From the NCBI GenBank assembly GCA_013115135.1, contig JABANP010000081.1, positions 97,482 to 161,481 on the forward strand: DNA of 64,000 nucleotides, read 5' to 3'. A model generated the notes under the pieces. The model was given only the letters and a program-made list of their open reading frames with translations, had not been told where the DNA came from and made no database searches. Origin of the DNA: Perkinsus olseni. Lineage: Eukaryota > Perkinsozoa > Perkinsida > Perkinsidae. A program made the position numbers and the translations under genes. Positions within the stretch are counted from its first letter, which is position 1. Every line of letters starts with the position of its first letter. Shown piece by piece: positions 1 through 62,203 of this stretch.

Positions 1-3000
1 GTGGCATCAGCGGCGACGGTTGAAGAGGAAGCACTCGATGGCGCAGCCGTATGAGGATGCTTTCGGGTCTTCCCACGACCCTTCTTCGACTTCCCACCAG
101 CAGATCCTATACAAGGAGACAGTAAGCTCGGCTGTCATGGGGCCGATAATGATCGTCACTGCGCCACGAAATTATTCAACCCCATCCACCCTCACCCGTC
201 GCCGTTGATGAGCCAGTCTTGGTAGATCGCTGTGGCGGAGGGGCTGGTGGTGGATACCTGATAGACAATACCGTGTGTGCAGCCATTGCTGATGACACGA
301 TGATGACGATATCACATTCGGAATAGATGTAGCCTGGTGATGTCCCTGAGCCGGGGCATCAAGGCTGGCATCACCTCATCCGTCAACTGCATCTTCACCT
401 ACCACACAACAACACCCTACCACCACCACCGATGATTTAGGGGAGGAGGTGCTCACCTTGAACGCAAGGGAGTTGGGGTCATCCGCCCGTCCATCGTTAC
501 ACCTCCGACGTCTTTGTGAGTGCCCTCCAACACTAACACATGATAATGAGCAAACACCAGCCACCAGCACTACTACTACCATAACGCAGTCTTGCAGTAC
601 TGGTAGAAGGGGAAGTCGTCCTTTAGAAGGAGGTCCTTCGAACGCCATGTATCAGGCAAACCGTAGATGATGAATAACACCAGTATGGCGCTGACGAGGA
701 TGAGGATAATTCTATCAAATAATCTTCGCTCCGCCTGCTTTCACCTGTCGTGTATTTCGGGCTTCCACCAGCGTAGTATCTTCCCCGAGGCTGCTCCTCT
801 CATTGATGGTAGCTCAGCAGCCAAGCCAACCAAACGCTTCACTCGGGCCTCAAACGCATCACGAGGATTCTCTGGCGACTGACACGATCACATCACAGTG
901 GACAACGATGAACCCGGCCGCCCCACCTGCTGGGCCTTCTTTGCCTTGCCTGTGGGGCCACGACCAGGCGAGCCACCATAGCATAAATATTGCCGTAGTG
1001 CAAGTAGCATCTACCACAACATCATCCCTAGGGACACCAACTCTTCCCTCCATCTCTACCTGAGGCGAATGACCTCATCCTTGGGCGTGTCACCATTGAC
1101 CGTCACCAGAGCAAGAGGAGATTTCACGTTCAACTCATGCGGCAGATCGTCAAACGTCATGTGCATCATCCTGCAGATGGACGGTGGGAGATGGCTGATG
1201 ACGGCCCGTAGGTTACTGATTCTGTATGAGGCCATTGGGCAACTCCGTCTCCTCCCTCACAGCCGCTCCCTCGGACACCATTACTTCATACGCCAGGTGG
1301 GTGAGATACCTGTCAAGACGAAAACGTCCATCAATCCTAGCGGAGCGAAGCACTTACATGTATCCAAAATCGAGAAGATCCTGTGGCTTGAGGGGAGGGA
1401 GCTCCTTCAATGCCTGCGCGTTGCCCAGCCTTCTGGACTTCTGAACCCTCGGCTCTTCGACCTTCACATCATCGAGGAAGGTGTTGGCCCACATCTTATT
1501 GGCCGTTGGCGGCACGAAGGATGCCAGAACAGCTTCCTCGGCGCCATCTGGGGCACAGGAGGAGGCAATCGTCCAGAGGGAGACTAGCCGAGACCTACCT
1601 TTCACATGAGCAGCCTTCTCCATCATACCCCATGCTGTATCAGCGTCCCACTGCACGTCCGGCTCGGTCAGAGGCTCATTCAAGGCCTTGGCGATCATCT
1701 CCTGACAACAGACCATCTTCCGAAGGCAGGCCGCCATGGGCATTGGCCTCCAGGAGGGGTAACCCCTATCAGAACCGCGTCCGCCGCAATTTCACACGAT
1801 AGAGATGAGAGACAGCGTGGCCTCTCACCTTATCAGACTCGTCCTCCTCATCCTCATCCTCAGCCGACTTCAACGCAGGCCCCTTATCCTCGGAGGTGAA
1901 GGACTCACCCAAGAGCCGGCGCCTCTTGTCACCGGAGATACCAAGCATGCCTAGGACTTGATCGAGGGTCCACGGTGTGACACCCTTCCATCTTATGAAC
2001 GACTTGGACGCCTCAACTCTGGCTGGGTGGCACCACTTCGCCTCGACTGTCGGCTCAGCCATCAACCTCTTCTGCTTGGCCTCTTGATTGCGCTCGTAAG
2101 TCTGCTTGTTAGTCAGACCATCAGCGAGTTTCCTACCCAGAGGTCCCCGGTTCAATCCCAACACTCGACATCCCCAGAACTCACTCCAAGATGGCCGCCA
2201 CTGTACTCCGTTCCTTCGCTGTGTTCATCCCGAACTTCAATGTCCTCAGCAGGACCTCCAAGATAGAGGCCGATGGGGGCTCCTCCATCCCACCCAGCTG
2301 GTACCTGCTACCATAACTCCTGGCCAATCAAAAGCCAGCGACACTTACAAAGTGTTGATTCTATTCACGATCGACCGGACGTAATTACCGTCAGGCGAAG
2401 GGACGAGGTCTCCCAAGCTACCCGTGAGGGAAGCATACCTGAGGATCGTCAGGTGGTAGTGAGAGAGGTATCACCAGGATCTGATCTCCTTACATATTAT
2501 ACTGCTGCATTTTGTCATTAGTACACAGGAGTTGGGTCCGTAGTAGGTTATGGCTCTGCAGTAACCGTATATGGTTCACTGAGGCCTGAGCGGCAGCAAC
2601 GTTAGGATGATACCAAAAATCCCCCACCTACCTGATAGGCCTTCCTCTGATCATCCGAGACGAAGGCAAAGCCAGCGTTGACGAACATATCCCGAGTAAT
2701 GTACTCAGCAGTAGCAGCGGCAGCCGTCGATGGATGATGCTTATCATGAGCCGCTTGCTGCTGCGGCTCAGCTACAAGGAAGGGACTGTCCATCCACTCT
2801 ACCTCATCAAGGACCAACTTACATTCGCTGCCGGAGGCGACTGCGGTGGTAGCAGCCTCGCCCTTGGAGGCAAGTCGAGACTTCAACTCATCCAAGTAGA
2901 CCGTCAAAACTCTACGAAGGTCGGATAGTTTAACCTACCACAGAATTTTAGAAATAGCAAGATTGCAAGATTGACGTCAAGACCCACCTTGTCTTGCAGC

Positions 3001-6000
3001 TCAGTGACCACACATTTGGATCGTAGCATGAGTAACCAGTGGTCCACCGAGGGGGGGTTGAGGCGTTCTAGATGCTTCTCGAGGATGGCCATACCTGCAA
3101 CATCAACCACCCTCACGCCCTATCAAAACTTGTCTTTACGCAGGGACAGTAGGGCAATGGTACTGGCAGCGACTAACGAGATGAGTGGTACCAAAGGCTA
3201 CTCCTATGGACTGCATACGACGGAGAGAGCCCAAGCAGCACTGCCGCGGCCTCATCATACAGTGGTCCAAATTAACTTTGAGTATCGCCTAGAAATTTAT
3301 TAACGCTTCAACAGTTGAAGTGCAACTACGAGGGTTCGATCCTGATCTTCTAGGACAGTATACCCAAGAATGACATAAACTCTCAGAAAACTGTGACCGT
3401 TCCACGCCTCTGCAACCATCATGCATATCCCAAATTAATTCGGAGCACTGTACTACGAGATGCTGCTACCACAAGTCCAACCTTCCCCCGACCAACTCCA
3501 ATGAGCCCACCTTCAAAGTGATCCCCAGGCTCTCTCTCCTCGGAGGCTTCCATCGCCCCTAACATGTGCATCATCACTCCAGGAGGGATGGTATTGGCAC
3601 TCACCAGGTTCCCCAGCCCCTATGCGTGTGTTGGGAGGCAATAGCAGCAGCGAGTCATCATCCTCACCACCACCATGATGAGCAGTGCTGTCCTCTTGTT
3701 TGATCATACTGCCCGATTCCAACCATCGTACGATGGCCTCCAACTCACGCTCATCTAACCAGGCAACAGGGCGTGGCGAGCTCGGTGCCATCACTCACAC
3801 CCCAGCCCAACGCCTTACTGTAACTCCGCCTCTCCTCCTCTCCCTTGGCATCATTAGCTCCGCGCTGCTGCTGATTGCCTCCCTCCTTACCTAAGTGGTG
3901 GGCTGAGTGAAAACCTGGATAAAGTAAAGAGGAACTCCCTACCATTATTGATGCTGAACTTCGCGAACGTCGTCCGAAGGCCAGTCTTCCTCAGTACTGG
4001 ATCGAGCACTGCTGGAGGCACACCAATGCTCAGGACTGTGTCCACGAAGGCCTGCAGGGAGCGGTACGTGTGCACGCGTGCCCAACGGTATCTCACCTTC
4101 ACCATGTCCTTGGCTACATCAGTATCTGCGGTCCAGAGGAGGGCTCGCTGCTGATTCTTCCACTCTTGCCACAGCGATCGAACACGGCCAAGACAGAAGA
4201 GGACGTTGGGACACTGAGGAACCCGTATTTGCCCATAGTCGACCTAAGATACCTCCAGCGGCGGTAGCCTACCTCTATCGTGTTAGAGTCCCCTTTTCCG
4301 TCATCTTTCGACCTGCCAAGCACTTTACTGGAAATAAACTCCGCAGGGAGAACTCACTTGGACTTCTTCCCTCGGCCGGTAGCGGCGGCTACCCTCTCTT
4401 GCTCCACTCGCAATTCCTCAATGCGCTCCAAGAAGTAAGTGTTATCAGAATCAGGGTCCATCATAGTAGCTAAGACCGATCCTTGCTTCTCACCCAGTAC
4501 CACACCCTCCCCTACTCGTCACTGTATGGAGGCCTCTCTTGACCCGGAGTATCCTGAGCAGTTCCTTATCATCCCTCGGAGTCCACCAAAGGCGACAGCC
4601 AGTGGTCTGAGTCGTCTTCCGAGGCATCGCCTGACCACACCACCATACCCGCCGCCGTCGCCGTCCTCTCCCCTCCCGCCTTACCCGGATCACCCAGGTC
4701 GGCAGACCCACATCCCCCCTGGGGGGCGGCAGATGCTCAAGTCGAGATTCTGGCAGGGTCTCAGGAGGGCGATCTACCCCCAACCATTCCACCTATCATC
4801 AATACCACTCATCGCCCACATCACATCAACGCTACCCTCACCCTCCACTGGACCCCCTCCTCGCCCTCCCCTTCTATTCTCCTCTTCAGTCTACATATGC
4901 TATACTCCTCGGCAGCACCATCCTCACTAGCTCCCTCTCCAAGGTTGACCCTAGCACGCTGGCCCAGCCTCCAGTCTGAGATCAGCTCTTATCGATCACT
5001 CCTGAGTACCCTCCCCTTACCATCACCATCAGCCGTCCCTGCCGCCTCTCTTTCATCCTCCTCTTCGTCGTCATCATTAAACAGATCCATCGTAGCCTGG
5101 TAATACAGTCCGTGCAGAGCATCAGCCTGGTTCAACTCTCTCTCGGCATTCTTCGCTCCCAGGACCAAGTCCTGAAGATCCCTGTTTTTATTATACCTAT
5201 ACTGAAAATGAGGGATCGCTTCGCTCCGCCTTTTATTACTTCCACATAGCAGTGACTGAGGTCTCGGCCACATGGCCGATGACGTCCGGCATGCCCGTCC
5301 ACATGAACAGCTCATCGAACTTCGCTGTGTCCGGGTTGGACCGATCCGCGTCCAACTCCGCAACGATCGCCTTACGGACATCCGCCGGCTCATCATCTGT
5401 CATGGTTTCTGAAATACGCCTCTGGCAGGGATCGAACCCGGGGTCTCAGCAATGCCTACCATCGCTCTCCCCTTCCCCCATGACCATCGCCTTCAACTGA
5501 GGGTCTGCCTTCACCTCCTCCAAAATCACATTCAGGAGTTCCACATCATAGATCCACTTCACATGAGTATACACACCTATCGCAATCTTGCTCATCTTGC
5601 ATTTCCTCAACGACACCCCACCCCTACCCGTTGCATCCTCAGCAGTGAGCATCTGGAAGTGGCTGTTGCTGCTATGATGATGGTGATGGGCAGGTTGTTT
5701 GTCCATCTCCGTCGGCGAGGGGGCATCCTCCACCGATGGGCTCTTGGATGGTGTAAGACCTCTACCACCCTCCGGAGAGGGGGAGGAGGAGGCTGACCCA
5801 TCACCACCCTCAGGGGACCTTAAAAAGGACAAAACAACGATTGCTTCGCTCCGCTGTGCCCGGAGTCCATCTATGAATTCTATTGCTCTACCAATTTCCT
5901 CATCCATCCGGTCAAGAAGCATGCGAAATGAATAAATTTTCCCCAATTTTTCTTCCACAGTCGAGTACCACAACATACCCATCATCCGGAGATTCCTTCA

Positions 6001-6335: not shown

Positions 6336-6469
6336 CTCACAATCCCTTATACGCTGCATGCAGAAGTCGATGCCTAGTATGATGATAACTACTGTCATTG
6401 ATCACTGATAATCATCTTCCTATTGACGAAGAGGGCTGCCATAGACCAGTACAACTGAGTACCTTAGCA

Positions 6470-12283
<5,814 letters not shown>

Positions 12284-12545
12284 ACCTCCAACACAACACT
12301 ATACAGTTCACCACCCTTGTACATGCGTGCAGATCACCGTCATACCACTCCTTCGCTAAATCCCGTATAGCTAAACAACAACATGTATCCCCTGTTGCCC
12401 CCTTCCCGCCAGCCATCACAGAGAGCTCACATACACCACCACCATCAGCGATAACGATGTCATGAGACCAGCAGCAGCCATAGCCCTAAGGGCGGGCGAG
12501 ACCCGAGAGCTGCCTCGACGGTGGAGTGGCTACCAGAGCACTCTA

Positions 12546-12609
12546 CTGCATTATCATCGAGCAAGGGTTAACCGGGCACTCTGGTTCGATCCCCGGGTGA
12601 GGCATGTAC
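12546..12609 (-). other. short intron carrying a tRNA T-arm, boundaries tentative
   Basis: The plus strand reads CACTCTGGTTCGATCCCCGG, then GTGAGGCA like a tRNA acceptor strand. The donor GTACATGCC is on the minus strand at 12,609; the acceptor (TAATGCAG) at 12,546 is the likeliest of several. Confidence 0.5.
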
Positions 12610-13041
12610 GCTATGTATGAGCCATCCAAGGCATGGGGACAGATCAGCAGCAGTGGAGCACACAACGCAGGACCTCGAGGCGAACCCTCTGCCCAGCAAG
12701 CCTTCACCCCACTACACCTCCTACCACGGGGTACAGGAGCCCTGCTGGTAGCAACCCCACTGGACCTACCTCCGAAGATGTGATACCAACATCGGCAGAG
12801 ATATCCATTCATAAGCTCCATCTCCTCCATACTGGACTGCTCTGATCATACCCCTCCTGCTGGCCTGCATTTTGGGGTGTGTATGTACATGCGTGCTGCA
12901 CGCATGCACACGAATAGGAGATGTCACAGTGAGGCCGGGCATCATCGGAAAGGTCCTGCGGTATCCTTTTCGGAAGCTTTTGTACTCTCTGTGAGTCGAT
13001 CATATTCCTGCCAGTCCTCTCCCGATGCTAACGCGGCGCTC

Positions 13042-13092
13042 CTTAGAGGTGACAACCGCAGTCCCGAGGTCCCAGGTTCGATTCCTACACAC
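13042..13092 (-). other. 51-nt intron carrying a tRNA T-arm
   Basis: Minus strand GTGTGTAGGAATCGAACC ... CACCTCTAAG. The plus strand reads CGAGGTCCCAGGTTCGATTC. The downstream exon is open (SAALASGEDWQEYDRLTES). Confidence 0.65.
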
Positions 13093-13373
13093 GTCATTCA
13101 TTAACAACACCAAGCACAGCAAATCAATGCAAAGAGGTGAATGAGCATCACATAATCATCACAGTAGCCTCGAGAGCGTTGGTGCTGTTCCGCCGCCCTC
13201 TCCAATCGGTTATTACAGAATACATCATCAAATGGTAGCAAAAGTAGACATAGTACGGTTGTAGCGGTAGTATCATCATCACTTGTTATGGTTGAAAAAA
13301 GCTCCCCCGAAGAACGGACGCTCATGTCTGACATCCTCATTGAAGGCCCACTGTGTAGCCCTAACATTAACAC

Positions 13374-14860: not shown

Positions 14861-15057
14861 GCGATGTTCTGATATAATAGTGATAGAAGCAATGGCTATA
14901 AATGTCGATGGTCATCAACGGCTACCGTGATAATACTTTTTCTTCCACCTCAGACTCCCCTCGCTTACTAGTTGAAAACGACCACCTGTTGGTAATACAG
15001 GATACCCCTGCATCAACGCTATGATGTAATACTGAGGTATTCCATCTCATGTCATCA

Positions 15058-15480: not shown

Positions 15481-15536
15481 AATAAATAGATCGCACCAAA
15501 CTCAGTCAAACTCAGCAAAGCCGGCTCGCACAGCTC

Positions 15537-17002: not shown

Positions 17003-17324
17003 CACCGACGCACACTAGATCGGGCCGGCGAGGGTTACATCGGAAAAGGGAATCCTTGAGGGCAAGAAGCGCACGCCCAAGCAATCGATAACGAATGTAC
17101 GCGTTCCGTAGCAATTCCCGTGAGCGGTCCCCGAGGGGCAGGTCTTCGCATAGATCTTCTAAGGGGGCGTTCTCATGATGAGGGCAGAGAAGGCCGCAGG
17201 AAGGTAGTACCAACTGGAGCTGCGTTTTTTCTGACGATTTTTCGTATTTTTCCGTAAAAATAACGGTCGCGCGTCTGTAAAGACGAGGATTTTTGACGAA
17301 GTTGATCTCTTCTTCTCATGACAG

Positions 17325-18482: not shown

Positions 18483-18484
18483 CC

Positions 18485-19594: not shown

Positions 19595-22500
19595 CAACTC
19601 TGGCTGGGTGGCACCACTTCGCCTCGACTGTCGGCTCAGCCATCAACCTCTTCTGCTTGGCCTCTTGATTGCGCTCGTAAGTCTGCTTGTTAGTCAGACC
19701 ATCAGCGAGTTTCCTACCCAGAGGTCCCCGGTTCAATCCCAACACTCGACATCCCCAGAACTCACTTCCAAGATGGTCGCCACTGTACTCCGTTCCTTCT
19801 GCGTGTGTGTGATCCCTGAACTTCACTGTTCCTCAGCAGGACCTCCAAGATAGAGAGGCCGATGGGGGCTCTCCATCCCACCCAGCTGGTACTCTGCTAC
19901 CATAACTCCTGGCCAATCTAAAAGCCAGCGACACTTGACAAAGTGTTGATTCTATTCACGATCGACCGGACGTAATGTCAGGCGAAGGGACGAGGTCTCC
20001 CAAGCTACCCGTGAGGGAAGCATACCTGAGGATCGTCAGGTGGTAGTGAGAGAGGTATCACCAGGATCTGATCTCCTTACATATTATACTGCTGCATTTT
20101 GTCATTAGTACACAGGAGTTGGGTCCGTAGTAGGTTATGGCTCTGCAGTAAACCGTATATGGTTCACTTGATATTGAGCGGCGCAACGTTAGGATGATAC
20201 CAAAAATCCCCCACCTACCTGATAGGCCTTCCTCTGATCATCCGAGACGAAGGCAAAGCCAGCGTTGACGAACATATCCCGGAGTAATGTACTCAGCAGT
20301 AGCAGCGGCAGCCGTCGATGGATGATGTCTTATCACGAGCCGCTTGCTGCTGCGGCTCAGCTACAAGGAAGGGACTGTCCATCCACTCTCACCCTCATCA
20401 AGGACCAACTTACATCTGCTGCCGGAGGCGACTGCGGTGGTAGGCAGCCTCGCCTGGAGGCAAGTCGAGACTTCAACTCATCCAAGTAGACCGTCAAAAC
20501 TCTACGAAGGTCGGATAGTTTAACCCACCACAGAATTTTAGAAATAGCAAGATTGCAAGATTGACGTCAAGACCCACCTTGTCTTGCAGCCTCAGTGACC
20601 ACCACATTTGGATCGTAGCATGAGTAACCAGTGGTCCACCGAGGGGGGTTGAGGCGTTCTAGATGCTTCCTCGAGGATGGCCATACCTGCAACATCAACC
20701 ACCCCTCACGCCCCTATCAAAACTTGTCTTTACGCAGGGACAGTAGGGCAAATGGTACTGGCAGCGACTAACGAGATGAGTGGTACCAAAGGCTACTCCT
20801 ATGGACTGCATACGACGGAGAGAGCCCAAGCAGCACTGCCGCGGCCTCATCATACAGTGGTCCAAATTAACTTTGAGTATCGCCTAGAAATTTATTAACG
20901 CTTCAACAGTTGAAGTGCAACTACGAGGGTTCGATCCTGATCTTCTAGGACAGTATACCCAAGAATGACATAAACTCTCAGAAAAACTGTGACTGTTCCA
21001 CGCCTCTGCAAACCATCATGCATATCCCAAATTAATCTGGAGCACTGTACTACGAGATGCTGCTACCACAAGTCCAACCTTCCCCGACCAACTCCAATGA
21101 GCCCACCTTCAAAGTGATCCCCAGGCTCTCTCTCCTCGGAGGCTTCCATCGCCCCTAACATGTGCATCATCACTCCAGGAGGGATGGTATTGGCACTCAC
21201 CAGGTTCCCCAGCCCCTATGCGTGTGTTGGGGAGGCAATAGCAGCAGCGAGTCATCATCCCTCACCACCACCATGATGAGCAGTGCTGTCCTCTTGTTTG
21301 ATCATACTGCCCGATTCCAACCATCGTACGATGGCCTCCCTAACTCACGCTCATCTAACCAGGCAACAGGGCGTGGCGAGCTCGGTGCCATCACTCACAC
21401 CCCAGCCCAACGCCTTTACTGTAACTCCGCCTCTCCTCTCTCCCCTTGGCATCATTAGCTCCGCGCTGCTGCTGATTGCCTCCCTCCTTACCTAAGTGGT
21501 GGGCTGAGGAAAACCTGATAAAAGTAAAGAGGAACTCCCTACCATTATTGATGCTGAACTTCGCGTGAACGTCGTCCGAAGGCCAGTCTTCTCTCAGTAC
21601 TCGGGATCGAGCACTGCTGGAGGCACACCAATGCTCAGGGACTGTGTCCACGAAGGCCTGTAGGGAGTGGTATGTGTGCACGCGTGCCCAACGGTATCTC
21701 ACCTTCACCATGTCCTTGGCTACATCAGTATCTGCGGGTCCAGAGGAGGGCTCTCGCTGCTGATTTCTTCCACTCTTGCCACAGCGATCGAACACGGCCA
21801 AGACAGAAGAGGACGTTGGGACACTGAGGAACCCGTATTTGCCCATAGTCGACCTTAAGATACCTCCAGCGGCGGTAGCCTACCTCTATCGTGTTAGAGT
21901 CCCCTTTTCCGTCATCTTTCGACCTGCCAAGCACTTCTTACTGGAAATAAACTCCGCAGGAGAACTCACTTGGACTCTTTTCCCTCGGCCGGTAGCGGCG
22001 GCTACCCCTCTCTTGCTCCACCTCGCAATTCCTCAATGCGCTCCAAGAAGTAAGTGTTATCAGAATCAGGGTCCATCATAGTAGCTAAGACCGATCCTTG
22101 CTTCTCACCCAGTACCACACCCTCCCCTACTCGTCACTGTATGGAGGCCTCTCTTGACCCGGAGTATCCTGAGCAGTTCCCTTATCATCCCTCGGAGTCC
22201 ACCAAAGGCGACAGCCAGTGGTCTGAGTCGTCTTCCGAGGCATCGCCTGACCACACCACCATACCCGCCGCCGTCGCCGTCCTCTCCCTCCCTGCCTTAC
22301 CTCGGGATCACCCAGGTCGGCAGACTCCACATTCCCCCCCTGGGGGCGGCAGATGCTCAAGTCGAGATTCTGGCAGGGTCTCAGGAGGGCGATCTACCCC
22401 CCAACCATTCCACCTATCATCAATACCACTCATCGCCCACATCACATCAACGCTACCCCTCACCCTCCACTGGACCCTCCTCGCCCCTCCCCTTCTATTC

Positions 22501-23975
22501 TCCTCTCTTCAGTCTACATATGCTATACCTCTCGGCAGCACCATCCCTCACTAGCTCCCTCTCCAAGGTTGACTCCTAGCACGCTGGCCCAGCCTCCAGT
22601 CTGAGATCAGCTCTTATCGATCACTCCTGAGTACCCTCCCCCTTACCATCACCATCAGCCGTCCCCTGCTGCCTCTCTTTCATCCCTCCTCTTCGTCGTC
22701 ATCACTAAACAGATCCATCGTAGTCTGGTAATACAGTCCGTGCAGAGCATCAGCCTGGTTCAACTCTCTCTCGGCATTCTTCGCTCCCAGTGACCAAGTC
22801 CTGAAGATCCCTGTTTTATTATACCTATACTGCAAATGAGGGATCGCTTCTGCTCCGCCTTTTTATTACTTCCACATAGGCAGTGATTGAGGTCTCGGCC
22901 ACATGGCTGATGACGTCCGGCATGCCTGTCCACATGAACAGCTCATCGAACTTCGCTGTGTCCGCTGGACCGATCCGCGTCCAACTCTGGCAACGATCGC
23001 CTTACGGACATCCGCCGGCTCATCATCTGTCATGGTTTTCTGGAAATACGCCTCTGGCAGGGATCGAACCCGGGGTCTCAGCAATGCCTACCATCGCTCT
23101 CCCCTTCCCCATGACCATCGCCTTCAACTGAGGGTCTGCCTTCACCTCCCTCCAAAAATCACATTCAGGGAGTTCCACATCATAGATCCACTTCACATGA
23201 GTATACACACCTATCGCAATCTTGCTCATCTTGCATTTCCTCAACGACACCCCACCCCTACCCGTTGCATCCTCAGCAGTGAGCATCTGGAAGTGGCTGT
23301 TGCTGCTATGATGATGGTGATGGGCAGGTTGTTTGTCCATCTCCGTCGGCGAGGGGGCATCCTCCACCGATGGGCTCTTGGATGGTGTAAGACCTCTACC
23401 ACCCTCCGGAGAGGGGGAGGAGGAGGCTGACCCATCACCACCCTCAGGGGACCTTAAAAAGGACAAAACAACGATTGCTTCGCTCCGCTGTGCCCGGAGT
23501 CCATCTATGAATTCTATTGCTCTACCAATTTCCTCATCCATCCGGTCAAGAAGCATGCGAAATGAATAAATTTTCCCCAATTTTTCTTCCACAGTCGAGT
23601 ACCACAACATACCCATCATCCGGAGATTCCTTCAACATAGCCTCTTGCCTTTCCTCCTCCTCTCTTGCGCTCTCTTTAGCCTCGGCAGCTGCCCTCCTAC
23701 GAGTAACCATACCTACACAACAAAAACAGCAATCAACAGCGGAGCGATGCAGCAGCATAACCACCATAAGCACAGGTCATTATAGTCCTGTACAAGACTC
23801 CAATCCACATTATCATCAGACCCTTCAGCCGTAGTGGCGAGGATTCTCTGAGACACTCCGGCCTCCTTTCTGTCTCTCCGCCGCCATCCTGAACGCACGA
23901 CTCATTCTCAAGACGCTGGAGGCCACCCTCAAGCTCCAATATAGGGGTTCCGGAACTCCCCTGGGCAAAAACTAA
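19595..23975 (-). pseudogene. copy B of the charged exons behind the helicase, cut at the junction
   Basis: Duplicate of 2,014-6,335. It lacks the exons at 1-2,013 because the repeat unit starts inside the gene, so the minus-strand gene here reads straight into the downstream end of copy A. Many one-base insertions in C or T runs disrupt the exons (for example CTTCTGCTCCGCC near 22,850 where copy A has CTTCGCTCCGCC). As annotated it cannot encode the full protein. Confidence 0.7.
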
Positions 23976-24109: not shown

Positions 24110-27100
24110 GCATGTCCGTCCTCTCTGCCTTCACCACTCTCATCAGTTATAACCATACCAAACTCGTCTATCTCGCCAGCATCAACTCTGGGAAGAACAA
24201 CGCCATACCGTTGAGGAATTGCAAGATAGCAAGATAAGCACCAACCTGCTGTTCATATCCTCGCCCCCTCGTAATCCCTCTTCACTACTCTCCTCACTAG
24301 GCGATGGCGTTGCCAAGCTCACTGAGCCACTGCTGCCCACCCCTCGAGTGGACGATGCTGTTCTCTGTCGTAGATGGGGAACTGCAGCCTTCCGAGAGTT
24401 ACTCATGATGGGCAGTCTCATCCCTCTAATAGATAATCCCCGGAACGCCTAAATATGAAGTAAACCTTGTCGGAAGCGCGCGCCCGTTTGATCGATATGA
24501 GTTACCTCCCACTGGCCATAAACCCATATCTAAACATTTGATGGAGGTCCCTTCTCTTGCTCTTGCTAAACCAGAAGCCGAGCCTCTGTCGCTCCAACTG
24601 CCTGGCCGACTGGGTTGGGTAGGGCCATGGGCACCGCCTCCGCCACCCTGTGTCTGGCGTATCATCTCCGATAATGACGGTATCGCATAGGAGCCGGAGA
24701 ATTCGTACAAATGCATCAGTCCGAGGCGTGAGAAAGTGAACTCGAAGGACGATCAACAGCGATGTGGCTTTGAAACAACACGGTCATTCGAGTTCAGACC
24801 ATCGCCGACAACAGCAGCTGCGAATGGAACTCACTTTGATCGCCTTTTCGCCCATATCCTCATCAAAGGCCTCCCTCATCCATCAACTGCGCCAGGCTAT
24901 CATCCCCGACCAGCTTACGCCAAAAGTCAGTGTCCCTCGACAGATACCTGACGCGAGAGGCATCCAGGTTCGATCCCGGCCCCGACATCTTCTCCGTACA
25001 TTATTGCCATGTTCATCCTCTGTACTCGGTGAGGGTTGGCTCATCTTTCGGACTCTCAGGCTCCAAGTCCTTCCTCATTAGCCACGAACGTGGCCTTTGG
25101 AGAATGCCGACTTGCGCCCACCGGACACCACCGTACCGTACCTGATTACGATTAAAACCAATCACGGCGGCGTGTCCTCTATCAGAACATCAGAAACACC
25201 ATCCGATGATCCTTCTATCAGAGGGAATAAGGAGAAAAAGGCTCATCATAAAGGATACAGCCCAGTCAAGAAATTCCTGGATTGGACTGTACACTGAATA
25301 GCACTATGTAAAAATTTTCTATAGATACGTGTATGTAGTAGTTGATATAAATATATTGTTTCTTGTATTTTATTTTTATTATTCTCTTGAAAAATACACA
25401 TTCCTACCTACGATAAATTATAGGCTGATAAATTAAAGTATTCGTCACAAGGCCGTTTGGGATGTACTCATCGTCGTCGTGTCAACTTACGTAACAGTCC
25501 TGGCTCTATCCGATGAGAGGATGTCGTCAATAGTGGCCGATACAAACTGGTCAGACTTCTCTTGGTCCCCTGGAGCAATAGCAGCTGCTGCTTCGCTCCG
25601 CTAACGCCGTCCTTTTCCTCACCTTCCTCATTCTTGCTGAACGCAGCATACGCACCATTCTTAATCAAATTATTCAGCTCCTCCTTAGACAGATGTAGCG
25701 TCGAATTCTTAGTCACGCCCGACATCAACGCCTAACAACAGCAAGCACGACTCCTACCACCAGGCCCCCTTCCGCCGATGATACCGACCTGTTCCAAGCC
25801 TAGCTTCCTACTGGCTGTATCGAACATGTGCTGCTCGTAGCTGTCCCGTGTTATCAGGCGATACACTTTAACCGTCTTGGTCTGCCCTATCCGATGGCAT
25901 CTACCACCACAGGAGCAATAACACTGAGGGAGTGGCGACCATCCTCGAGGGTTCTCCTCACCTGGCTCTGGGGCCTGAGTATCGTTCTGAGGGTTCCAGT
26001 CCGAGTCGTATATAACGACAACACTGGCAGCGGTAAGGTTAATGCCAACCCCTCCTGCTCTAGTGGATAGGAGGAAGACGAAGGGAGAGTGGTCGAAGTG
26101 GGGGATCATCATCACACGGTGTATTGAACCGATCGATGGCCGCTTGACGATCAGTACTCGAGGAGCTGCCATCGAGCCGCTCTGACATGTACCTGGGGAA
26201 GGGTGGGAATCAATGCGTTGTGAAGACACGCTGGTTACTATGAATTGACATCAGTATTATCATTATACTAGATTTTTGATGCAAACACAAGCACAAGGGA
26301 GTTCACCACTACCATGACCTTGCAAACCTCTCAGGGGTTCGCGGGTTGGACTTTTCCCACAATGAGGGAGCACTCACACAGAATCCTACGGAATCCAGAA
26401 GATATCCCGGATATCTTCGTATATCCGTGAAAAATATTTCACTACTGGACGCTGACCACTTTGGAAGCTATCATCCGACACTCAGTTCACCATCTATGGC
26501 CGGCTATCCGAGCAGCTAACGATGATGACCACAATGCCCCTCCCTCCTCCCCACTCACCCTCTCCATCTGAGGTAGTCCTGTATGATATCAAGCATACGG
26601 GTCATCTGTGAGAAGATGAGCACCTTCTGACCATCCCTCCTTCAGCCTCGGGCAACAGCTTCTCCAAAAAAATACCATCTTGCCCGACATCTGCACCAAG
26701 TAGGTCATAACAGTATTCATATCATCTGCCATCAACAGCATCAGCAAGCTCCCACCGCAGGGTCGACCTACTCGGATCAGCTGCTCAGAGCTGAGCTGTG
26801 CCTCCTCCGTCCCTTTGTATAAGATAGGGATGGGCACAGCACTTCCTTAACTCCATGCTCACGTTAACGAACATCGCCTTGATAACCTGAGGAAGGGCAT
26901 TCCTGCAGCCACGAGAGGCCGAGGAGTGGCCAGTGAAAAATCGGCGACCAACTACCACCATGAAGATGATGAGCATGACAATGCTATAGATGCCCCCTTG
27001 CCTGATTATTAGCCAACTGCAATACGTTCTTTCTCGTAGATGGAGCGGTATATCTTCTTCTGCAGTCTAGTAAACTCCACTTCTATCACAACCTACCACC

Positions 27101-29958
27101 ACCGCAGCATAAGCACTCAGGCATCCCCTAATGACCAACCCACAACTACCTCCTCCTTTGGCGGCACCTTTCTTCATGACATCAGTCTTATGTCGTCTCA
27201 ATATATAAGGCTGTAGGACCGCCTGAGCTCCTCCGACTGATACGAAAAAGTTGGTATAGAAGTACGCATGCACACGACTCTACGGCACTTCCCATATCCC
27301 TCATCACTGTCTCTTGCCCTGCCCTCCCTCGGAGGCCATCGCCATGGAGAATGACTTTTCAAAGTCATCCCAACTATCAAACCTCTCATAATCCACCACA
27401 TTTAGAGGGACCAAAGCTCCTGCAGGTTGTTCTGTATCGGTGTGCCTGGCAGTCGGTAGAAAGGTCCCCGGTTCGATCCCCGGGCCCTCCATCCTCACCA
27501 GTCAGCAGCACATGATGGTCCACCTTCATGACCTTTCGATCACATATCTTCTGCTTCGCCAGTGAGTCCACACCCTTCAACCTGCCGACACGCCCACTGA
27601 CTACCCCTGCAGCCACAACCACCCCTACCGATGACCCTCGTCCATGATCAGGAGCCTCCAGTGGAAGCTACCCATATACTGTGACATAGCCAACAGCGTC
27701 TCATAGGAGGTCAGTAGCACGTCGAACTTAGGCCTGAGGGTAGCATCATACGGACTGCTCATAAACACGAGGCCGGCGCCGCTCACTTGTACTCCACCCT
27801 CCGTCGGACGCTACTCTTCTCGGAACACAGATGCACCAGTTTGTGTATCAACCCACGACAAGTCAGAGTCCATCATCATCTGCCTATCCTCAGCATTACC
27901 ATGGAGCAACACCGTCACCAACGATGGCGCCCACTGAAGCACGAAGGAGGTCTGCTGTCTTCCATCCCGACAGACGCCGGCCAACACACGATCGAACCAA
28001 CCCCATCGGAGTGGGGATGTCAAGCACCGGCGATCAACCGTCCCACGAGATGATAATTTTTTTGGAGAAGCCGGATCTGCAACTAGCGGTACGGCGTTCC
28101 TAATCCCGTGCAGTGGGCGAGACGATTCCTCCATTCTCCCCCTCGCGAAGGACTGTGGTCGGCGTGACACGGATGCAGGTCTCCTGCGTTCGGCCGATCA
28201 ACCCTCAACGATAAACCCGATACCCCCTGTCCGAATAGTCGGGGGATCTCACCTTCTGCAGTTCCCTCTTCCAATGGCCCAGTGTACTGAGTGGGGCTAC
28301 TACCAGGCATGGACCACCTCCACCAGAGTACTTCATAATGGCTGACAAGAGTACTGAGCTCTGCACAGTCTTCCCCAAGCCCATCTCGTCGGCTAGGATG
28401 GACCCTCGACGCTGGGACCAGTTATACAGCAACCATTGGACCCCTTCAATCTGATTATACCAACCTCAGCATCATTAATGGGTATCCCCCTTGACTCACC
28501 TGGAAGTCGAACAGAGTGTCCTCAGTGGGCCTGTATACATACTTCTTAGAACCATCCTTATCCTTCTGAACCTGAGGGGGCAGTGTGAGACCTTACCCAT
28601 GGAGCGCAATGCTGCTGCTGATACTCATTCAAACCAACAACACCAGCAGAGCATGAGGACCATCACGGCATCACCGCACCAAAAGCTCACCACACATCGC
28701 CATACACTCGAGCGTCCACTAGGAACCGCTATAACCCCGGTAGTACATCAATGAAGTCCTTAAGCCACTGCTCGGATGCCTTGGCTGGCCTCTCCGATTT
28801 GCACTGTAGCTTGGCCTTGCGGGATCGATCGTTTAATTCGTACCAGGCATCTATCAACTCCGTACTGATGCTGGCCTGAACGTACACTCCCATTATAACG
28901 TCCCCGGTACCACTCCTACCGTACTAAAGTAATTACGATTCACGAAAGTGATGGTACGGTTTTCGAGTGCTATCAGGCATACCACACCATTCTCATCCCA
29001 TCCCTATGACCTCTTCCTCCCATGTAGCATGGGTCATCTGCAACCCCTTCCATTTAACCATCCACTGCCTCTTCCCCTCATCTGCCCAGTCACCATCACT
29101 GGCGGCAATGCCCATGGACGCTTACCCTCCCGAAAGGTGATGAGACGTTCCATCTGCAGCCACTCCTCTTTGATGAGGCCTCGATCGACAAGCTCGTCCA
29201 ACAGAGCCGCCTGGGGTCCACTGGATGCATCATTAGTTGATCCTTGCAATAAACAAACAAGGTCACCGAGATGGTATCTTGATGTGCATGCGTGCAACTC
29301 CAACTCACCAGCTGAGCCCGATCGTTTCCGTCTAGGACTGTCCGCAGATGGCTGCATCAGTTGATCTCCCTCCCCGTCCACCGCAGCAGCAGCGGAGGTC
29401 GCCGAAGGAGGGGCCGCAACAAAGTCAACATTCTTGTCGATCTCCCGCGGATGCCGCTCCTCGAATTTTCGTATCTGCAACGCCCATCATCGGAATGCCA
29501 AAAAAAGGCCGACTCAGCGAGCCACCGTTCCACGCAGTGCGCGGGGTGCTCCCAGCATGCGAGAGTGGATTCATCCAAGACGTCGCCAGTGACCCAGTCT
29601 CTCCTCCCCTCTCCTCCCCCTCACCCCTGATGGTTGCCCCGTTATCATGCTCCAATAACGCTTCCATCGAGTGCCACGATACCCCTCGAATAAGGCTCAT
29701 TAGCCCATTTAATAAGATACTCATCAGCGTTGCTATCCTCTGGATGCAGCCGCCTCGCCAGTATTGCTCTCCATCTTTGTGCTCACCCCCTTCCACTGTG
29801 GTCGGGTGGTGGTGGTGGTGATGATGACGATGATGGTCAGACGAGGAAGACGACGACCGCTGATGGTCGTGTGAATCTGCTGTTGTTGCTGTCATTGGAG
29901 TGGCCAGTGGAAAGAGGCTTGGAGGCCCCTGCTGCTCAGGAAGGGACCAATTAAACAC
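24110..29958 (-). pseudogene. CHD-type helicase, copy B, several frame breaks
   Basis: Duplicate of 6,470-12,283 with the same exon order. Intact pieces include DEMGLGKT (about 28,390), [16 protein letters not shown] with [15 protein letters not shown] (about 25,840-26,080), and LSKEELNNLIKNGAYAAF (about 25,660). The helicase C exon is broken near 26,640-26,680, where extra C and A bases turn the frame that reads [19 protein letters not shown] in copy A. The right half (27.4-29.9 kb) is almost identical to copy A. Breaks cluster on the side nearer the junction, which favours sequence error over real decay. Confidence 0.75.
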
Positions 29959-31045
29959 ACCTCCAACACAACACTATACAGTTCACCACCCTTGTACATG
30001 CGTGCAGATCACCGTCATACCACTCCTTCGCTAAATCCCGTATAGCTAAACAACAACATGTATCCCCTGTTGCCCCCTTCCCGCCAGCCATCACAGAGAG
30101 CTCACATACACCACCACCATCAGCGATAACGATGTCATGAGACCAGCAGCAGCCATAGCCCTAAGGGCGGGCGAGACCCGAGGCTGCCTCGACGGTGGAG
30201 TGGCTACCAGAGCACTCTACTGCATTATCATCGAGCAAGGGTTAACCGGGCACTCTGGTTCGATCCCCGGGTGAGGCATGTACGCTATGTATGAGCCATC
30301 CAAGGCATGGGGACAGATCAGCAGCAGTGGAGCACACAACGCAGGACCTCGAGGCGAACCCTCTGCCCAACGAAGCCTTCACCCCACTACACCTCCTACC
30401 ACAGGGTACAGGAGCCCTGCTGGTGGCAACCCCACTGGACCTACCTCCGAAGATGTGATACCAACATCGGCAGAGATATCCATTCATAAGCTCCATCTCC
30501 TCCATACTGGACTGCTCTGATCATACCCCTCCTGCTGGCCTGCATTTGGGGTGTGTATGTACATGCGTGCTGCACGCATGCACACAGGTGGGGATGTCAC
30601 AGTGAGGCCGGGCATCATCGGAAAGGTCCTGCAGTATCCTTTTCGGAAGCTTTTGTACTCTCTGTGAGTCGATCATATTCCTGCCAGTCCTCTCCCGATG
30701 CTAACGCGGCGCTCCTTAGAGGTGACAACCGCAGTCCCGAGGTCCCAGGTTCGATTCCTACACACGTCATTCATTAACAACACCAAGCACAGCAAATCAA
30801 TGCAAAGAGGTGAATGAGCATCACATAATCATCACAGTAGCCTCGAGAGCGTTGGTGCTGTTCCGCCGCCCTCTCCAATCGGTTATTACAGAATACATCA
30901 TCAAATGGTAGCAAAAGTAGACATAGTACGGTTGTAGCGGTAGTATCATCATCACTTGTTATGGTTGAAAAAGCTCCCCGAAGAACGGACGCTCATGTCT
31001 GACATCCTCATTGAAGGCCCACTGTGTAGCTCCTAACATTAACAC

Positions 31046-56629: not shown

Positions 56630-58340
56630 TCACTTCCCTCTCCAGAGCAGTGAGTTCGCTTTCTTGTACATCCTAAGTGGTAAAGTGACCGCGAGAAGGG
56701 GCATTGTATCACCCACCATTGTGTCGCTCCCTGTTCCCCTGCTGCTCTGACTGCTGCTACGGCTACTTCGGGACCCTTCGCTAGCACAAACCTTTCGTTG
56801 CAGCTCGTCAAGCCTCAGGCCCAATGCTGATATATCCTACAGGGAATGATACACACAAAAAACCGGGCGACTGTCGCTATGATTCCTCATAGAGAGTTCT
56901 GTCAACTCGAGATTGTTCACTCAGATTCGGAGACTAACTTACCCCTACGGCCGAGGCCCGCTATACAAGGCATCAGCTGGGCGGGTGGCAGACAGCGACC
57001 CCTCACCTGCTTCTCAACTTGAAGGCCCTCCATCCGAGCAGCCACCTTGCTACGTCGACTCTCCAGCCTTCTGCGCTGATCGTCCAACTCTTCCCTCTCC
57101 AGGACGTGGTTATCGAGGCTCTTTCGACATGCTGCTATCTGAAATACCGTCAGACGCCGGGCTACGAGTAGCTCTCGCTGTGGGTCAGTACTTCCTCGGT
57201 GACTGCGGTTTGGTTCGATTCCACTTCGCACAGTATCGACGGTATCTGCCGACAGGCGACGTTAGCAAGAAGAGTCGCTCCTTACGGACAACGAGGGACA
57301 CAGTCAGCATTATCTGCCCGAGGGTGCAGATAGCACAGCAAGGACGGCAAGTGGATAAAGTACCAAGGAAACGCACTGTTGCTGGCATCTTTCTAACGAC
57401 CCCCTTTACCATATAGCGCCACCCCGCGCTAGCGAGTTTGAGCGCGGTATTGAGGGGTCCTTGAAAGAGTCCAGCTGTAAACATCATATGAGCGAGAAGA
57501 AGAGAGGTTATTGAACGGAGAGGATGGACTCGCCTCTCGTCGTGGAGTGCCCGACAGGATACGAGGAGCGATATCAGCAGTGATGATCGTCATCGGTACT
57601 ATCTCATGGGCCCGTTCTTACTTCTTCTAGTATGCCCTTGAGGACCTCCCCATCATGAGCAGCTGCCTCGAGAGCTTCCTCATCAGCCACTAGACGTTCC
57701 CGCACCTCCGACAGACTCTCTCGTATACCCTCCATCATGGACGACACCTAGTGGAAGTTATCGTGCACTGGGCAGACACGAGGTACCTCCCGTTCGGTGG
57801 CCTTAGCCGCGGAAAGCTCCTCCCTCAACCTTCGATACTCCTTCCTAGTCTCCCCTATGAGCTCATCGACCTGACGCTCTCTGGAGCGGACTCGCTGCCG
57901 TAGATCAGAGGTCTGATGAGAGAAAGAGGTCGCGGGTTCGATCCCGGCGATCGGCATCCCACCTCTTCTCGTCGCCGCGTCAAAGCTCCTTCCCTAGTGA
58001 TAAGCCAGGAGTCCTGCTCTCTAAGCTCTCCTGAGCAGCTCAAACCGATCGTCTCCGGCCACAACCCCGATCGCTCTCCATCCTGGCTCACCCGCGGTCT
58101 TCCGAGCATCCTCCAAGGCGAGGTCCCATCCACTATGCTTGCTTCTAGCATCCCTTCGTGCAGAGTCCAGTTCCCGACTCAGGCTCTGTACATCTTCCAG
58201 CCTACAACAGGAGCCTGGGCTTGTCAATCGGCCCCCCCCCCTCACCCTCGAGCAGCCCTGTCCCTGCGCTGCATCGCTGCTCGTATCTTCCGTTCCATCT
58301 CTCGACCAGACTGTTCCAGCCGTGCCTGGCCACATGACTG
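56630..58340 (-). CDS. coiled-coil protein, multi-exon
   Basis: Exons rich in Glu, Arg, Leu and Ala with heptad-like spacing. In protein order: QARLEQSGREMERKIRAAMQ (about 58,250-58,320); RLEDVQSLSRELDSARRDAR (about 58,090-58,205), joined to the former by a 43-nt intron; DLRQRVRSRERQVDELIGET (about 57,770-57,912), preceded by the tRNA-like intron 57,913-57,962; SSMMEGIRESLSEVRERL (about 57,625-57,750); LEREELDDQRRRLESRRSKV (about 57,020-57,130); and a C-terminal exon with LGLRLDELQRKVCASE and a Ser-rich stretch ending at about 56,630. A structural or cytoskeletal role is likely but unproven. No named domain was found. The gene could extend further upstream into 58.4-60.2 kb. Confidence 0.6.
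57913..57962 (-). other. 50-nt intron carrying a tRNA T-arm
   Basis: Minus strand GTGGGATGCCGATCG, then CGGGATCGAACCCG, ending CTCATCAG. The plus strand reads AGAGGTCGCGGGTTCGATCC. The downstream exon begins DLRQRVRSRERQVDEL. Confidence 0.8.
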
Positions 58341-60225: not shown

Positions 60226-60229
60226 TCCA

Positions 60230-62203
60230 GTGAAGATGGCTCGGCACTCGCTGTTTCGACTCGCAGCAAGCCAACAGTGCGGGTCACTCCACAGGTTCTC
60301 ACCCTCATCAGCCCTCAGCCTCTGCTCGACCACCTCTAGCTCAGCCAATCTGGCATCATCTTCACCTGTCGAGACGAGTACCGACGCTACCAGAGTGACT
60401 GCTTACTTGTCGATCGACTTGTGGTAGAAGGTTGCTGCCGTACTACAGTCTGCGGTGGAGGGGGCGTAGTGGCGGATGATACTCGACATGAGTACAAGGC
60501 GTTGATCTCAGCAACGTCCAGGTCCGACAGGTGCTCTCGTTGGCCGACCTAAAAATGATACCGAGGCTGCTGCCGTCATGCATAGTCCGTCATAGTGAAT
60601 GACCTCGCTTATCCCAGGCTCGTACTGTCCCTTCAACGTAAATACCCCGGGGTTAGTCCGAGGGTCGTACTTCTCGGCAATCATGCCTTGCGTTTTCGTG
60701 TAGTGCATAATACTACCATAATCGTAAGGGGAGTATTGCCCATTAACTCCCTGGTACCTGTCTGGTGGTGATGGCGCTCGCCCAGACGATCGATTTTGCA
60801 TTGATGGGAGCACTTACGAGTAGTGTCTGATGGCAAAGTTCTTCATGGTTGTCGGCTTTACGTTATCATAGATCATATCCAAGTACTTATTGCGGTCTCC
60901 TCGCATTTGCGTGTGAACCACTACGAAGTGGGAGAAGAATCTTTCCGTCACGCGCCACGAAATTACTGTATTACTTCCGAGGATGTGACCGAGTTCATGA
61001 ATAACGCTGCCAAGCCTGGAGAGGTCGGAACAGGAGCCGAGATTGATGAACGCTTGGCCCCCCGAGGGTATCCTAGCGGCCCCGCGCTGCACCCTGACGG
61101 CAGTCCAGAGCTCGAACGTAGCACCTGAGATGCAGGGGAGGGTGCGATACGAGAAGGGAGGGTAGGTGCCGAGAGTTCGCTTTACTAGGACCTGGACGGG
61201 GCGAGAGTACTCATTCTCAGTAGCCCTCCAACTCAGCGTAGAATGGCAGCAGCAACCACGGTATGGGAGATCTCTTGTTATATGGGACCCGTTCAAATTT
61301 CTTTGCCTTAAAAACTTTAAAAATGTACGAAATGAGCTCAGTTACTGAGACGGTGCTGCGCAGGGAAGTTGCCTCGACTGGAGCCAGTTCGCCTATCGCA
61401 TGCTAGGATGCTCCCTCATCACAAGGCCGCCCTTGTCACCTTCACAACAACACAACAACACACAACACACTATTGCCAATGGCAGTCGGTGAGGCCTCGT
61501 AAAAGTTTACCTGACAACGACGGCCTCGAAAAGTCATGAGACCATGATTCGCTTCGCTCCGCTAGAGGATTCCCCGTTGATTACACAAGTCTTTTCTCGC
61601 CACGCTGCCGCTGCCTCCCGCATGACAGTCCTCCTGCTCGAGTCGATGTTAGTATCACCAGGATCGAACATGTACGGTATCGATACTTGCCCATCCGCAC
61701 CCTAACGGAGCATCGTCATACTCGGCAGAGCATGGCCCGACCAACCTTGTTGGGCAGCCACAGAGGGACATCAGCACCGTTCTGAGGGCTTCGGTTATAA
61801 AGACGACATTTACCACAGGTGATAGGGCACTCGTCCGTCTCCTAGCCGAGGGCAATCATATATTACGCGAAGGTTCGATCCCGGCAGCCGATATTATTAC
61901 CTGCCGCCCACACCATCTTCTTCGGTATTTAGTATCGAATTCCAACACCCCACAAGTCTCGCCGCATCCAGTAGCTTTTGTGGCTCGCTGCCAACAACTC
62001 ATATGCTCAGTAACTCCTCGGCATTCACCCTGCACGCATGCACAAAAGATACCCCATAGCGCAGCAGGAAGATTCCCCGACCTTGGCTGCATATGGCACT
62101 CCTTGTTCATCTTTCTCCATCGGCTGCAACCGCCTCTGAATCCGTCGTCGGACCAGCCGAGTTCGATCTGATGAGAGCAAACAACTGCCATCGCTGTGCC
62201 CAC
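60230..62203 (-). CDS. astacin-like zinc metalloprotease with Cys-rich N-terminal region
   Basis: Secreted or surface M12A-type peptidase (family knowledge). After splicing of introns that restore the frame exactly: a Cys-rich region (about 61,900-62,170) ending DECPITCGKC (61,801-61,841 side), which resembles the end of a ShK domain; REAAAAWREKTC joined across 61,511-61,584 to VNFYEASPTA; HELGHILG joined across 60,921-60,974 to MVHTQMRGDRNKY, giving the complete HExxHxxGxxH zinc site; YDYGSIMHY, the Met-turn with the conserved Tyr, after intron 60,758-60,817; and VGQREHLSDLDVAEINALYS after intron 60,549-60,603, the classic astacin C-terminal helix. A Thr/Pro/Ser tail follows. Across intron 60,366-60,406 the frame continues into a charged helix (ARLAELEVVEQRLRADEG). 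No propeptide or signal was identified; the 5' end is uncertain. Confidence 0.85.
61511..61584 (-). other. 74-nt astacin intron carrying AGCGGAGCGAAGC
   Basis: Minus strand GTAATCAACGGGG ... GTTGTCAG, with the motif at about 61,551-61,563. Splicing joins AAAAWREKTC to VNFYEASP, the astacin TC-x-x-F motif. Unspliced, the frame stops. Confidence 0.85.
61634..61686 (-). other. about 53-nt intron with GTTCGATCC and a CTAAC branch-like site
   Basis: Minus strand GTATCGATACC ... GTTCGATCCTGGTGATACTAAC ends in CTCGAGCAG. The acceptor is followed by the astacin exon RTVMREAAAAW. The donor is uncertain and may lie further upstream. Confidence 0.5.
61842..61900 (-). other. 59-nt intron carrying a tRNA T-arm
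   Basis: Minus strand GTAATAATATCGGCTGCC, then GGGATCGAACC, ending CCTCGGCTAG. Splicing joins RRRWCGRQ to ETDECPITCGKC in frame. Confidence 0.8.

What the first reader, a model, noticed from the sequence alone, without database searches (positions are those of the whole stretch)
2133..61900. A family of about 50-nt introns that each contain the 3' half of a tRNA
At least eight distinct minus-strand introns (2,133-2,184; 5,409-5,459; 7,298-7,349; 9,772-9,824; 13,042-13,092; 57,913-57,962; 61,842-61,900; probably 12,546-12,609) carry the core GGTTCGATCC, the tRNA T-loop and pol III B-box consensus. Several also carry GAGGTCC before it and a tRNA-like acceptor strand after it. Most are antisense to the gene (5,409 is sense). 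Exon joins are exact, best seen at HHVLLTG/TPIQNN in the helicase. Unrelated genes share the core, so common descent from inserted tRNA-derived sequence (introner-like, SINE-like) is the simplest reading. I know of no description of tRNA-derived introners in such a genome, but could not search.
Basis: partly seen in the sequence, partly recalled or inferred. Interest (0 to 1): 0.92.

Follow-up and report, generated by a model that had tools for sequence, protein, structure and literature searches.

The report
Tiny introns built around tRNA ends
In a close relative of the shellfish parasite Perkinsus olseni, more than a thousand short repeats that look like the last third of a tRNA gene are scattered through the genome; in the DNA examined most sit in tiny introns, in either direction, and the part that in tRNA genes binds a transcription factor is kept almost unchanged, which hints at an undescribed way of making or using introns.

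Summary
The observation largely holds and is genome-wide. The genome is a Perkinsus close to P. olseni. GGTTCGATCCC occurs 1,189 times against 27 for the reversed control. Homologous proteins support seven exon joins across element introns. The repeat is the last third of a tRNA gene: variable loop, B box, varying acceptor strand, C72, A73, T run. No A box is enriched and T-stem pairing is mostly not maintained. Sense and antisense copies are equally common (25 and 27). The B box is protected: changes at G53, C56 and A58 are near background, while 57, 59 and 60 vary. Some unrelated genes share acceptor variants, so copies spread. Of 29 element introns, 19 would leave under 38 nt without the element. 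Best reading: a tRNA-3'-end-derived, introner-like family whose B box is under selection, probably through TFIIIC. No empty site, target duplication or RNA evidence was obtained; mobility and TFIIIC binding are inferred.

The parts
2133..2184 (-). 52-nt intron, element antisense to the gene (core GGTTCAATCCC at 2149-2159, + strand)
   Evidence: HMM intron; core
5409..5459 (-). 51-nt intron, element in sense
   Evidence: HMM intron
7298..7349 (-). 52-nt intron, element antisense
   Evidence: HMM intron
9772..9824 (-). 53-nt intron of a CHD1-like helicase gene, element antisense; exons join as HHVLLT|GTPIQNN
   Evidence: Pfam SNF2 match 418-665 spans the join
57913..57962 (-). 50-nt intron, element antisense
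   Evidence: HMM intron
13066..13101 (+). element (variable loop to T run); possible intron 13042-13092 not called
   Evidence: profile score 34.6; no HMM intron
61863..61898 (+). element; possible intron 61842-61900 not called
   Evidence: profile score 28.0 (listed as W2 25372); no HMM intron
   Evidence: profile score 27.2
   Evidence: flank score 10.4; profile score 27.0
19714..19765 (-). second copy of intron 2133-2184 in the duplicated stretch
23040..23091 (-). second copy of intron 5409-5459
24948..24999 (-). second copy of intron 7298-7349
27446..27498 (-). second copy of CHD1 intron 9772-9824 (bounds by comparison with the first copy; the HMM extends it to 27420)
30248..30283 (+). second copy of the element at 12574-12609
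   Evidence: core at 30257
30739..30774 (+). second copy of the element at 13066-13101
   Evidence: core at 30748

Best explanation
A family of about 36-42-nt elements descended from the 3' end of tRNA genes (variable loop, T arm with B box, acceptor strand, C72, A73, T run) has spread through this Perkinsus genome and makes up most of many ~50-nt spliceosomal introns, in either orientation. Proposed mechanism: a copy inserts into an exon; its edges supply or readily become splice signals (sense: GT next to AGGTC, T run upstream of YAG; antisense: GT next to the complement of CATTTT, as in GTAAAATG); the piece is spliced out and tolerated. Afterwards acceptor and stem positions drift towards intron composition, while the B box is held by selection on the DNA, most likely because TFIIIC binds it. 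Shown: intron position with exon joins supported by protein homology, both orientations, tRNA-like features at tRNA spacing, sharing between unrelated genes, B-box-type constraint. Inferred: insertion as the origin of the introns, TFIIIC binding, the copying machinery.
For: 1,189 cores against 27; only 1 of 51 exact local hits is a true tRNA gene. After removing one true tRNA and three mirror-image double counts, 32 of 53 profile hits lie in introns, which are 16.7% of the bases (p 1.1e-12), 14 are intergenic and 7 in predicted exons. Joins: CK2-alpha 37 of 37 residues gap-free; SEC63 gap-free; RPN1 identical to the P. marinus protein around the join; PP5-like, joins at residues 363 and 394 inside a gap-free PP5 alignment, 4 of its 9 introns carrying the element; kinesin and CHD1 joins inside Pfam domain matches. 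Conserved block about -9..+26. CATT at fixed spacing 263 against 0. T run of 3 or more in 16 of 25 sense, 10 of 27 antisense, 11 of 27 non-intronic copies, against 7% of intron 10-mers. The upstream part resembles the genome's tRNAs beyond a column shuffle (z 5.6; 7 of 84 with 12 or more of 15 against 0.9). 12 identical 9-mer pairs among 93 copies against 0.33 or 1.7 by two nulls, 7 of them with unrelated flanks by eye. 19 of 29 element introns would leave under 38 nt without the element; 5.6% of 593 other introns are that short. Mutated/control: G53 99/54, C56 62/33, A58 86/89 against R57 513/60, N59 1047/102, Y60 612/57.
Against: No target-site duplication (45 element introns; the only z above 2 in any element subset is 2.5 at one position of the 22 sense introns). 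No empty site for 9 element joins, nor for 30 control introns of the same genes; the CHD1 intron is shared with two paralogues on C13. The downstream part does not match the tRNAs held better than shuffle (z -2.1), and both parts together give z 1.4 (at most ten isoacceptor types were held). T-stem pairs 51-63 and 49-65 are not above shuffle (24 against 26, 20 against 27); only 50-64 is (45 against 40, p 0.02). Element introns are somewhat longer than others (median 59 against 51, p 0.0006), as insertion into existing introns would predict. The donor lies within 10 nt of the element edge in only 9 of 29. Splicing is inferred; no RNA was seen. Counts at 57, 59 and 60 include true tRNA genes, and N59 double-counts a palindrome.
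Confidence: 0.5

Rival explanations
1. TFIIIC-binding sites (extra-TFIIIC-like, extended B boxes) that arose and are kept in introns and intergenic DNA by selection, without descent from tRNA genes and without making introns. Other short cores in the same kind of introns would be sites of other DNA-binding proteins.
For: B-box-type constraint, copies in both orientations; stem pairing mostly not kept; [quoted passage not shown] a second core, GCTTCGCTCCGC, is also repeated (1,749 against 6), and its 11-base part lies in 12 short introns in both orientations.
Against: Does not predict the T run after A73, the shared variable 9-mers in unrelated genes or the excess in introns over intergenic DNA (32 against 14 on 41 and 95 kb, p 5e-8).
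Confidence: 0.22
2. tRNA-end fragments inserted into introns that already existed; selection for short introns then trimmed the rest.
For: Element introns are slightly longer than others, and several are 78-102 nt. No target-site duplication or empty site was found. Introns are the safest place for insertions.
Against: 19 of 29 would have had a remainder below 38 nt; in 9 of 29 the donor lies within 10 nt of the element edge.
Confidence: 0.2
3. Recent, neutral tRNA gene fragments from many different tRNA genes; the core looks constrained only because the copies are young and their sources functional.
For: Allowed changes are those of tRNA T loops; different copies resemble Leu, Arg, Ile or Ser tRNAs upstream.
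Against: Young copies of working tRNAs should keep T-stem pairing and known acceptor strands; mostly they do not (with an incomplete tRNA set). Variable positions differ with orientation in the gene (G 0.37 and T 0.30 in sense, C 0.38 in antisense), which suggests age.
Confidence: 0.08
4. An RNA-level role, such as a T-arm mimic in the pre-mRNA.
For: T-loop invariants are kept.
Against: Equal use of both orientations; stem covariation in one of three pairs only, weak; reading the core as a palindrome that works both ways is at odds with the asymmetry of tolerated changes, G53 +45 against its partner Y60 +555.
Confidence: 0.04

Closest known systems
Introners (Micromonas, Aureococcus, Symbiodinium, Amoebophrya and others)
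   Same: Repeated short sequences that are introns in unrelated genes; varied splice-site recruitment at the element edges; gene enrichment in 161 of 175 genomes (PMC9860276 and PMC7789003, passages).
   Different: Resembles a tRNA 3' end and carries a constrained B box; no TSD seen here. The main text of PMC9860276 has no occurrence of tRNA, SINE or Perkinsus.
Extra-TFIIIC (ETC) sites
   Same: B box without A box, with extended conservation (PMC12409998, PMC11724288, PMC5391098, passages).
   Different: Here they are repeats found mainly in tiny introns, with a tRNA-like end and T run; binding not tested.
tRNA-derived SINEs
   Same: tRNA-related sequence, B box, dispersed copies.
   Different: No A-box excess, no tRNA 5' half in nearly all copies, conserved over 36-42 nt only. 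SINE features are recalled.
Dada DNA transposons in Perkinsus marinus
   Same: Same genus; tied to tRNA genes (PMC3706591, passages).
   Different: Kilobase elements that insert into tRNA genes; the passages read report no role in making introns.

Membership tests
Introner | Similar introns in unrelated genes | tested here: met
   GGCATGTTG in L034, L071, L072; GGCATGTGT in L080, L081, L082; TGGCTGCGG in L085, L086, flanks unrelated by eye, each with a predicted intron
Introner | Element extends over the intron, not just a motif within it | tested here: inconclusive
   About 36-42 of ~50 nt conserved; outermost bases vary
Introner | Presence/absence between alleles, strains or paralogues | tested here: inconclusive
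   No empty site for 9 joins; no other strain available
Introner | TSD (many but not all families) | tested here: not met
   45 introns, no excess match across junctions; not a required feature (PMC9860276)
Introner | TIR (many but not all families) | not tested
   no dedicated test; not a required feature (PMC9860276)
Introner | Spliced out, by RNA-seq | not testable with these tools
   Protein joins only
ETC site | Intact B box without A box | tested here: met
ETC site | TFIIIC bound, TFIIIB and Pol III absent | not testable with these tools
   no chromatin data
tRNA gene | Full cloverleaf with paired stems | tested here: not met
   1 true tRNA among 51 exact local hits
tRNA-derived SINE | A and B boxes of a Pol III promoter | tested here: not met
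   A box in 4 of 84 against 2.4 shuffled and 5 on the reverse strand; tRNA 5' part in 2 of 82, control 1

The most novel reading that the evidence does not exclude
A tRNA-3'-end-derived introner family whose B box is kept by selection, so that over a thousand sites, many of them in Pol II introns of Perkinsus, are TFIIIC-binding sites: intron gain here doubles as the seeding of Pol III factor sites throughout genes.
Probability: 0.35. Interest if true: 0.92.

Novelty: new variant of a known kind. Interest (0 to 1): 0.8.

Why it matters
Where new introns come from is an open question; introners so far are linked mostly to DNA transposons (PMC9860276, passages). An intron family from tRNA ends would be a new source, and a core that stays fixed while the rest drifts would show introns being used as DNA-level sites. 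With over a thousand copies in a compact genome, both points can be tested by comparing strains and species.

Tried and rejected
Full tRNA genes or pseudogenes: rejected (ARAGORN and Rfam on the window; Rfam at E up to 10 on 19 and 6 loci; an acceptor partner upstream with 7 of 7 pairs in 1 of 68 elements against 1.3 expected). A-box or tRNA 5' remains: 4 of 84 (2.4 expected) and 2 of 82; only L039 near 7379 looks convincing. T-stem covariation: not for 51-63 and 49-65, weak for 50-64. A palindromic site (GGWTCGAWCC): disfavoured by the asymmetry of tolerated changes. Target-site duplications: none; AG|GT target preference not significant, exon +2 T enriched, 27 of 45 against 198 of 539, p 0.004 uncorrected. 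Empty sites: none. My first impression that degenerate cores are rare was biased, because most of the DNA was fetched around exact hits; I replaced it by genome-wide counts. The first gene-finder run was over-fitted and was redone with a lower order.

Rows dropped before counts: the duplicated window stretch (19,561-36,500) in the local tests; two true tRNAs (L032 +, L057); segmental-duplicate loci L074, L075, L076, L084; 7 of 100 nine-mers as duplicates (3 checked by flanks, 4 presumed from neighbouring places in the listing). In one search, 57 hits included one true tRNA and three mirror-image hits of elements already listed; one search recounts without them (53). Orientation calls for loci L051-L086 come from fragments of 166-201 bases and are weaker than those for the 10-kb loci.

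Literature: ten searches used. 'Introner' with 'tRNA' listed 13 papers, 'Perkinsus' with 'introner' one (PMC7789003), 'tRNA-derived' with 'spliceosomal intron' and 'intron gain' one unrelated paper, and the four-term search none. I read passages of PMC7789003, PMC9860276, PMC12409998, PMC5391098, PMC3706591 and PMC11724288, no whole paper; the rest are listings. The library holds open-licence PMC papers only.

Full report
Source. The window is contig C790:97482-161481 of an unnamed 61.5-Mb assembly in 968 contigs. A predicted RPN1 protein from locus L040 is 74% identical to Perkinsus marinus over the whole query and 97% to a partial P. olseni protein over 24% of it, so the organism is a Perkinsus close to P. 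olseni.

The motif. GGTTCGANNCC: 15 in the window against 0.40 expected. In the genome the exact core GGTTCGATCCC occurs 605 times forward and 584 reverse, the reversed-word control 14 and 13 times. In 70 hits aligned without gaps (two of them true tRNAs, removed in later tests), conservation begins at about -9 and ends at about +26 from the first G. In tRNA numbering this is variable loop (RAGGTC), T arm with B box, a variable acceptor strand, C72, A73 and a T run. With CATT exactly nine bases after the core there are 263 copies, control 0.

The introns. I trained a gene HMM on 247 kb (window without its duplicated part, plus L031-L050). It gives 622 introns, mostly GT(A/G)(A/G)G to YAG, median 52 nt. 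Seven exon joins across element introns are supported by homologous proteins: CK2-alpha, 37 of 37 residues aligned without gap; SEC63, gap-free; RPN1, identical to the P. marinus protein around the join; a PP5-like phosphatase with joins at residues 363 and 394 inside a gap-free alignment to PP5; kinesin GQT|GSGKT and CHD1 HHVLLT|GTPIQNN, each inside a Pfam domain match. Three are sense (CK2-alpha, kinesin, PP5 394) and four antisense (SEC63, RPN1, CHD1, PP5 363). The PP5-like gene carries the element in 4 of its 9 predicted introns; its other two joins, at 257 and 321, lie outside or at the edge of the alignment.

Location. Of 53 distinct profile hits, 32 lie in predicted introns (15 sense, 17 antisense), 14 are intergenic and 7 in predicted exons; introns are 41 of 247 kb, p 1.1e-12, and against intergenic DNA alone p 5e-8. 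With the short loci added, 25 are sense, 27 antisense and 33 other; of the 33, 23 have no gene call and 10 lie in predicted exons, 8 of these antisense, one being a true tRNA. Some of the exon cases may be missed introns. The DNA was fetched around exact hits, so absolute densities are biased. Hits are clustered: 10 of 78 neighbouring gaps are under 2 kb against 3.0 expected, segmental duplicates included.

Did the element make the introns? Element introns have median 59 nt (n 29) and the others 51 (n 593). Without 36 nt of element, 19 of 29 would be under 38 nt, a length that 5.6% of other introns have. In 9 of 29 the donor lies within 10 nt of the element edge; GTAGGTC in L071, L085 and L034 and GTAAAATG in antisense L077 show how an edge can become a donor. 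This favours introns made from the element over insertion into old introns, but later trimming cannot be excluded. There is no target-site duplication signal and no empty site for 9 element joins, nor for 30 control introns.

Spread by copying. Among 93 copies after removal of duplicates, 12 pairs share the variable nine bases; independent columns predict 0.33 and a first-order model 1.7 (maximum 10 in 2,000). I fetched flanks for five groups; seven of the 12 pairs sit in unrelated sequence, judged by eye, while L073/L074, L075/L076 and L083/L084 are segmental duplicates. Flanks of the other five pairs were not compared.

Relation to tRNAs. Upstream of the core, copies resemble tRNAs of this genome beyond a column shuffle (z 5.6); for instance elements of L039 and L034 resemble tRNA-Leu and one of L040 tRNA-Ser. 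Downstream they do not (z -2.1), and both parts together give z 1.4, with at most ten isoacceptor types held. T-stem pairs 51-63 and 49-65 are at or below shuffle and 50-64 weakly above (p 0.02); a paired 5' acceptor strand is not enriched. A boxes and 5' halves are not enriched. T runs of three or more after position 73 occur in 64% of sense, 37% of antisense and 41% of non-intronic copies, against 7% of intron 10-mers. So the element is tRNA-3'-end-like but not a tRNA.

Constraint on the B box. Up to one mismatch the genome has 4,791 sites, control 751. Mutated at one position against control: G53 99/54, C56 62/33, A58 86/89; R57 513/60, N59 1047/102, Y60 612/57; positions 52, 54, 55, 61 and 62 were not counted singly. 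If the one-mismatch excess (about 2,880) were spread evenly, each position would carry about 260; three B-box invariants carry 45, 29 and none. In 12 local one-mismatch copies with supporting flanks the changes are at 52, 54, 57, 59, 60 and 62 only. True tRNA genes add to the counts at 57, 59 and 60, and GGTTCGAACC is palindromic, so those counts are upper bounds; the near-absence at 53, 56 and 58 is the robust part. Because stems and acceptor are mostly not held and both orientations are used, a DNA-level reader of the B box, TFIIIC, is the likeliest cause; this is inference. That a C56G change abolishes TFIIIC-dependent targeting, and that solo B boxes bind TFIIIC, is stated in PMC5391098 (passages); tau91 contacts downstream bases conserved in ETC loci (PMC11724288, passages). 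The CHD1 intron of the window and that of its paralogue L075 differ at four of 53 bases, none in the core.

Drift of the rest. Acceptor positions 66-71 are G/T-rich in sense copies and C-rich in antisense ones, that is G-rich on the gene's strand in both, as expected if they have drifted within introns.

Known or new? PMC9860276 (passages) does not mention tRNA, SINE or Perkinsus in its main text; PMC7789003 (passages) describes inverted-repeat introners in Amoebophrya. Among the titles and abstracts listed by ten searches and the passages read, none describes tRNA-derived introns; the library lacks most subscription journals. I file it as a new variant of introner-like introns, with the ETC reading as the main rival and possibly the second half of the same story.

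Noticed in passing
window 724, 5219, 5844, 7934, 15199, 16253, 61552, 63933 (+) and 1340 (-); genome-wide: A second short repeat, GCTTCGCTCCGC: 1,749 copies in the genome against 6 in the control; its 11-base core lies in 12 short introns, 35-87 nt, in both orientations in the DNA held. Nature unknown.
   Followed up: partly
window 162, 60953; L031-L034, L038, L040, L044, L048: A further core, CGCCACGAAA: 12 copies in 247 kb against 0.6 expected, 8 of them in predicted introns.
   Followed up: partly
window 18074, 62405; L034, L043, L049: TTCTGACACCTCTAGCT, a ~16-nt repeat; of 8 ACACCTCTAG copies 6 lie outside predicted introns.
   Followed up: no
window 9592, 12900, 62034 (+) and 11623 (-); L033, L046, L048: ACGCATGCACA, part of a nearly palindromic repeat; 4 of 8 copies in introns, 4 intergenic.
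   Followed up: no
window 2014-18899 and 19595-36570: About 17 kb is present twice, 97.98% identical with 226 gap openings; genes in the second copy are more broken in the HMM call, so it may be an unmerged haplotype or an assembly error.
   Followed up: partly
G000 C778, C823, C179; L014-L017, L019, L029, L030: Tandem arrays of tRNA-Ile, tRNA-Arg and tRNA-Thr genes with spacings of about 170-190 bases, including mutated copies.
   Followed up: no
L050 3056-4665: A repeat with units of about 140-154 bases containing TGAGTTTCCA, with one larger gap.
   Followed up: no
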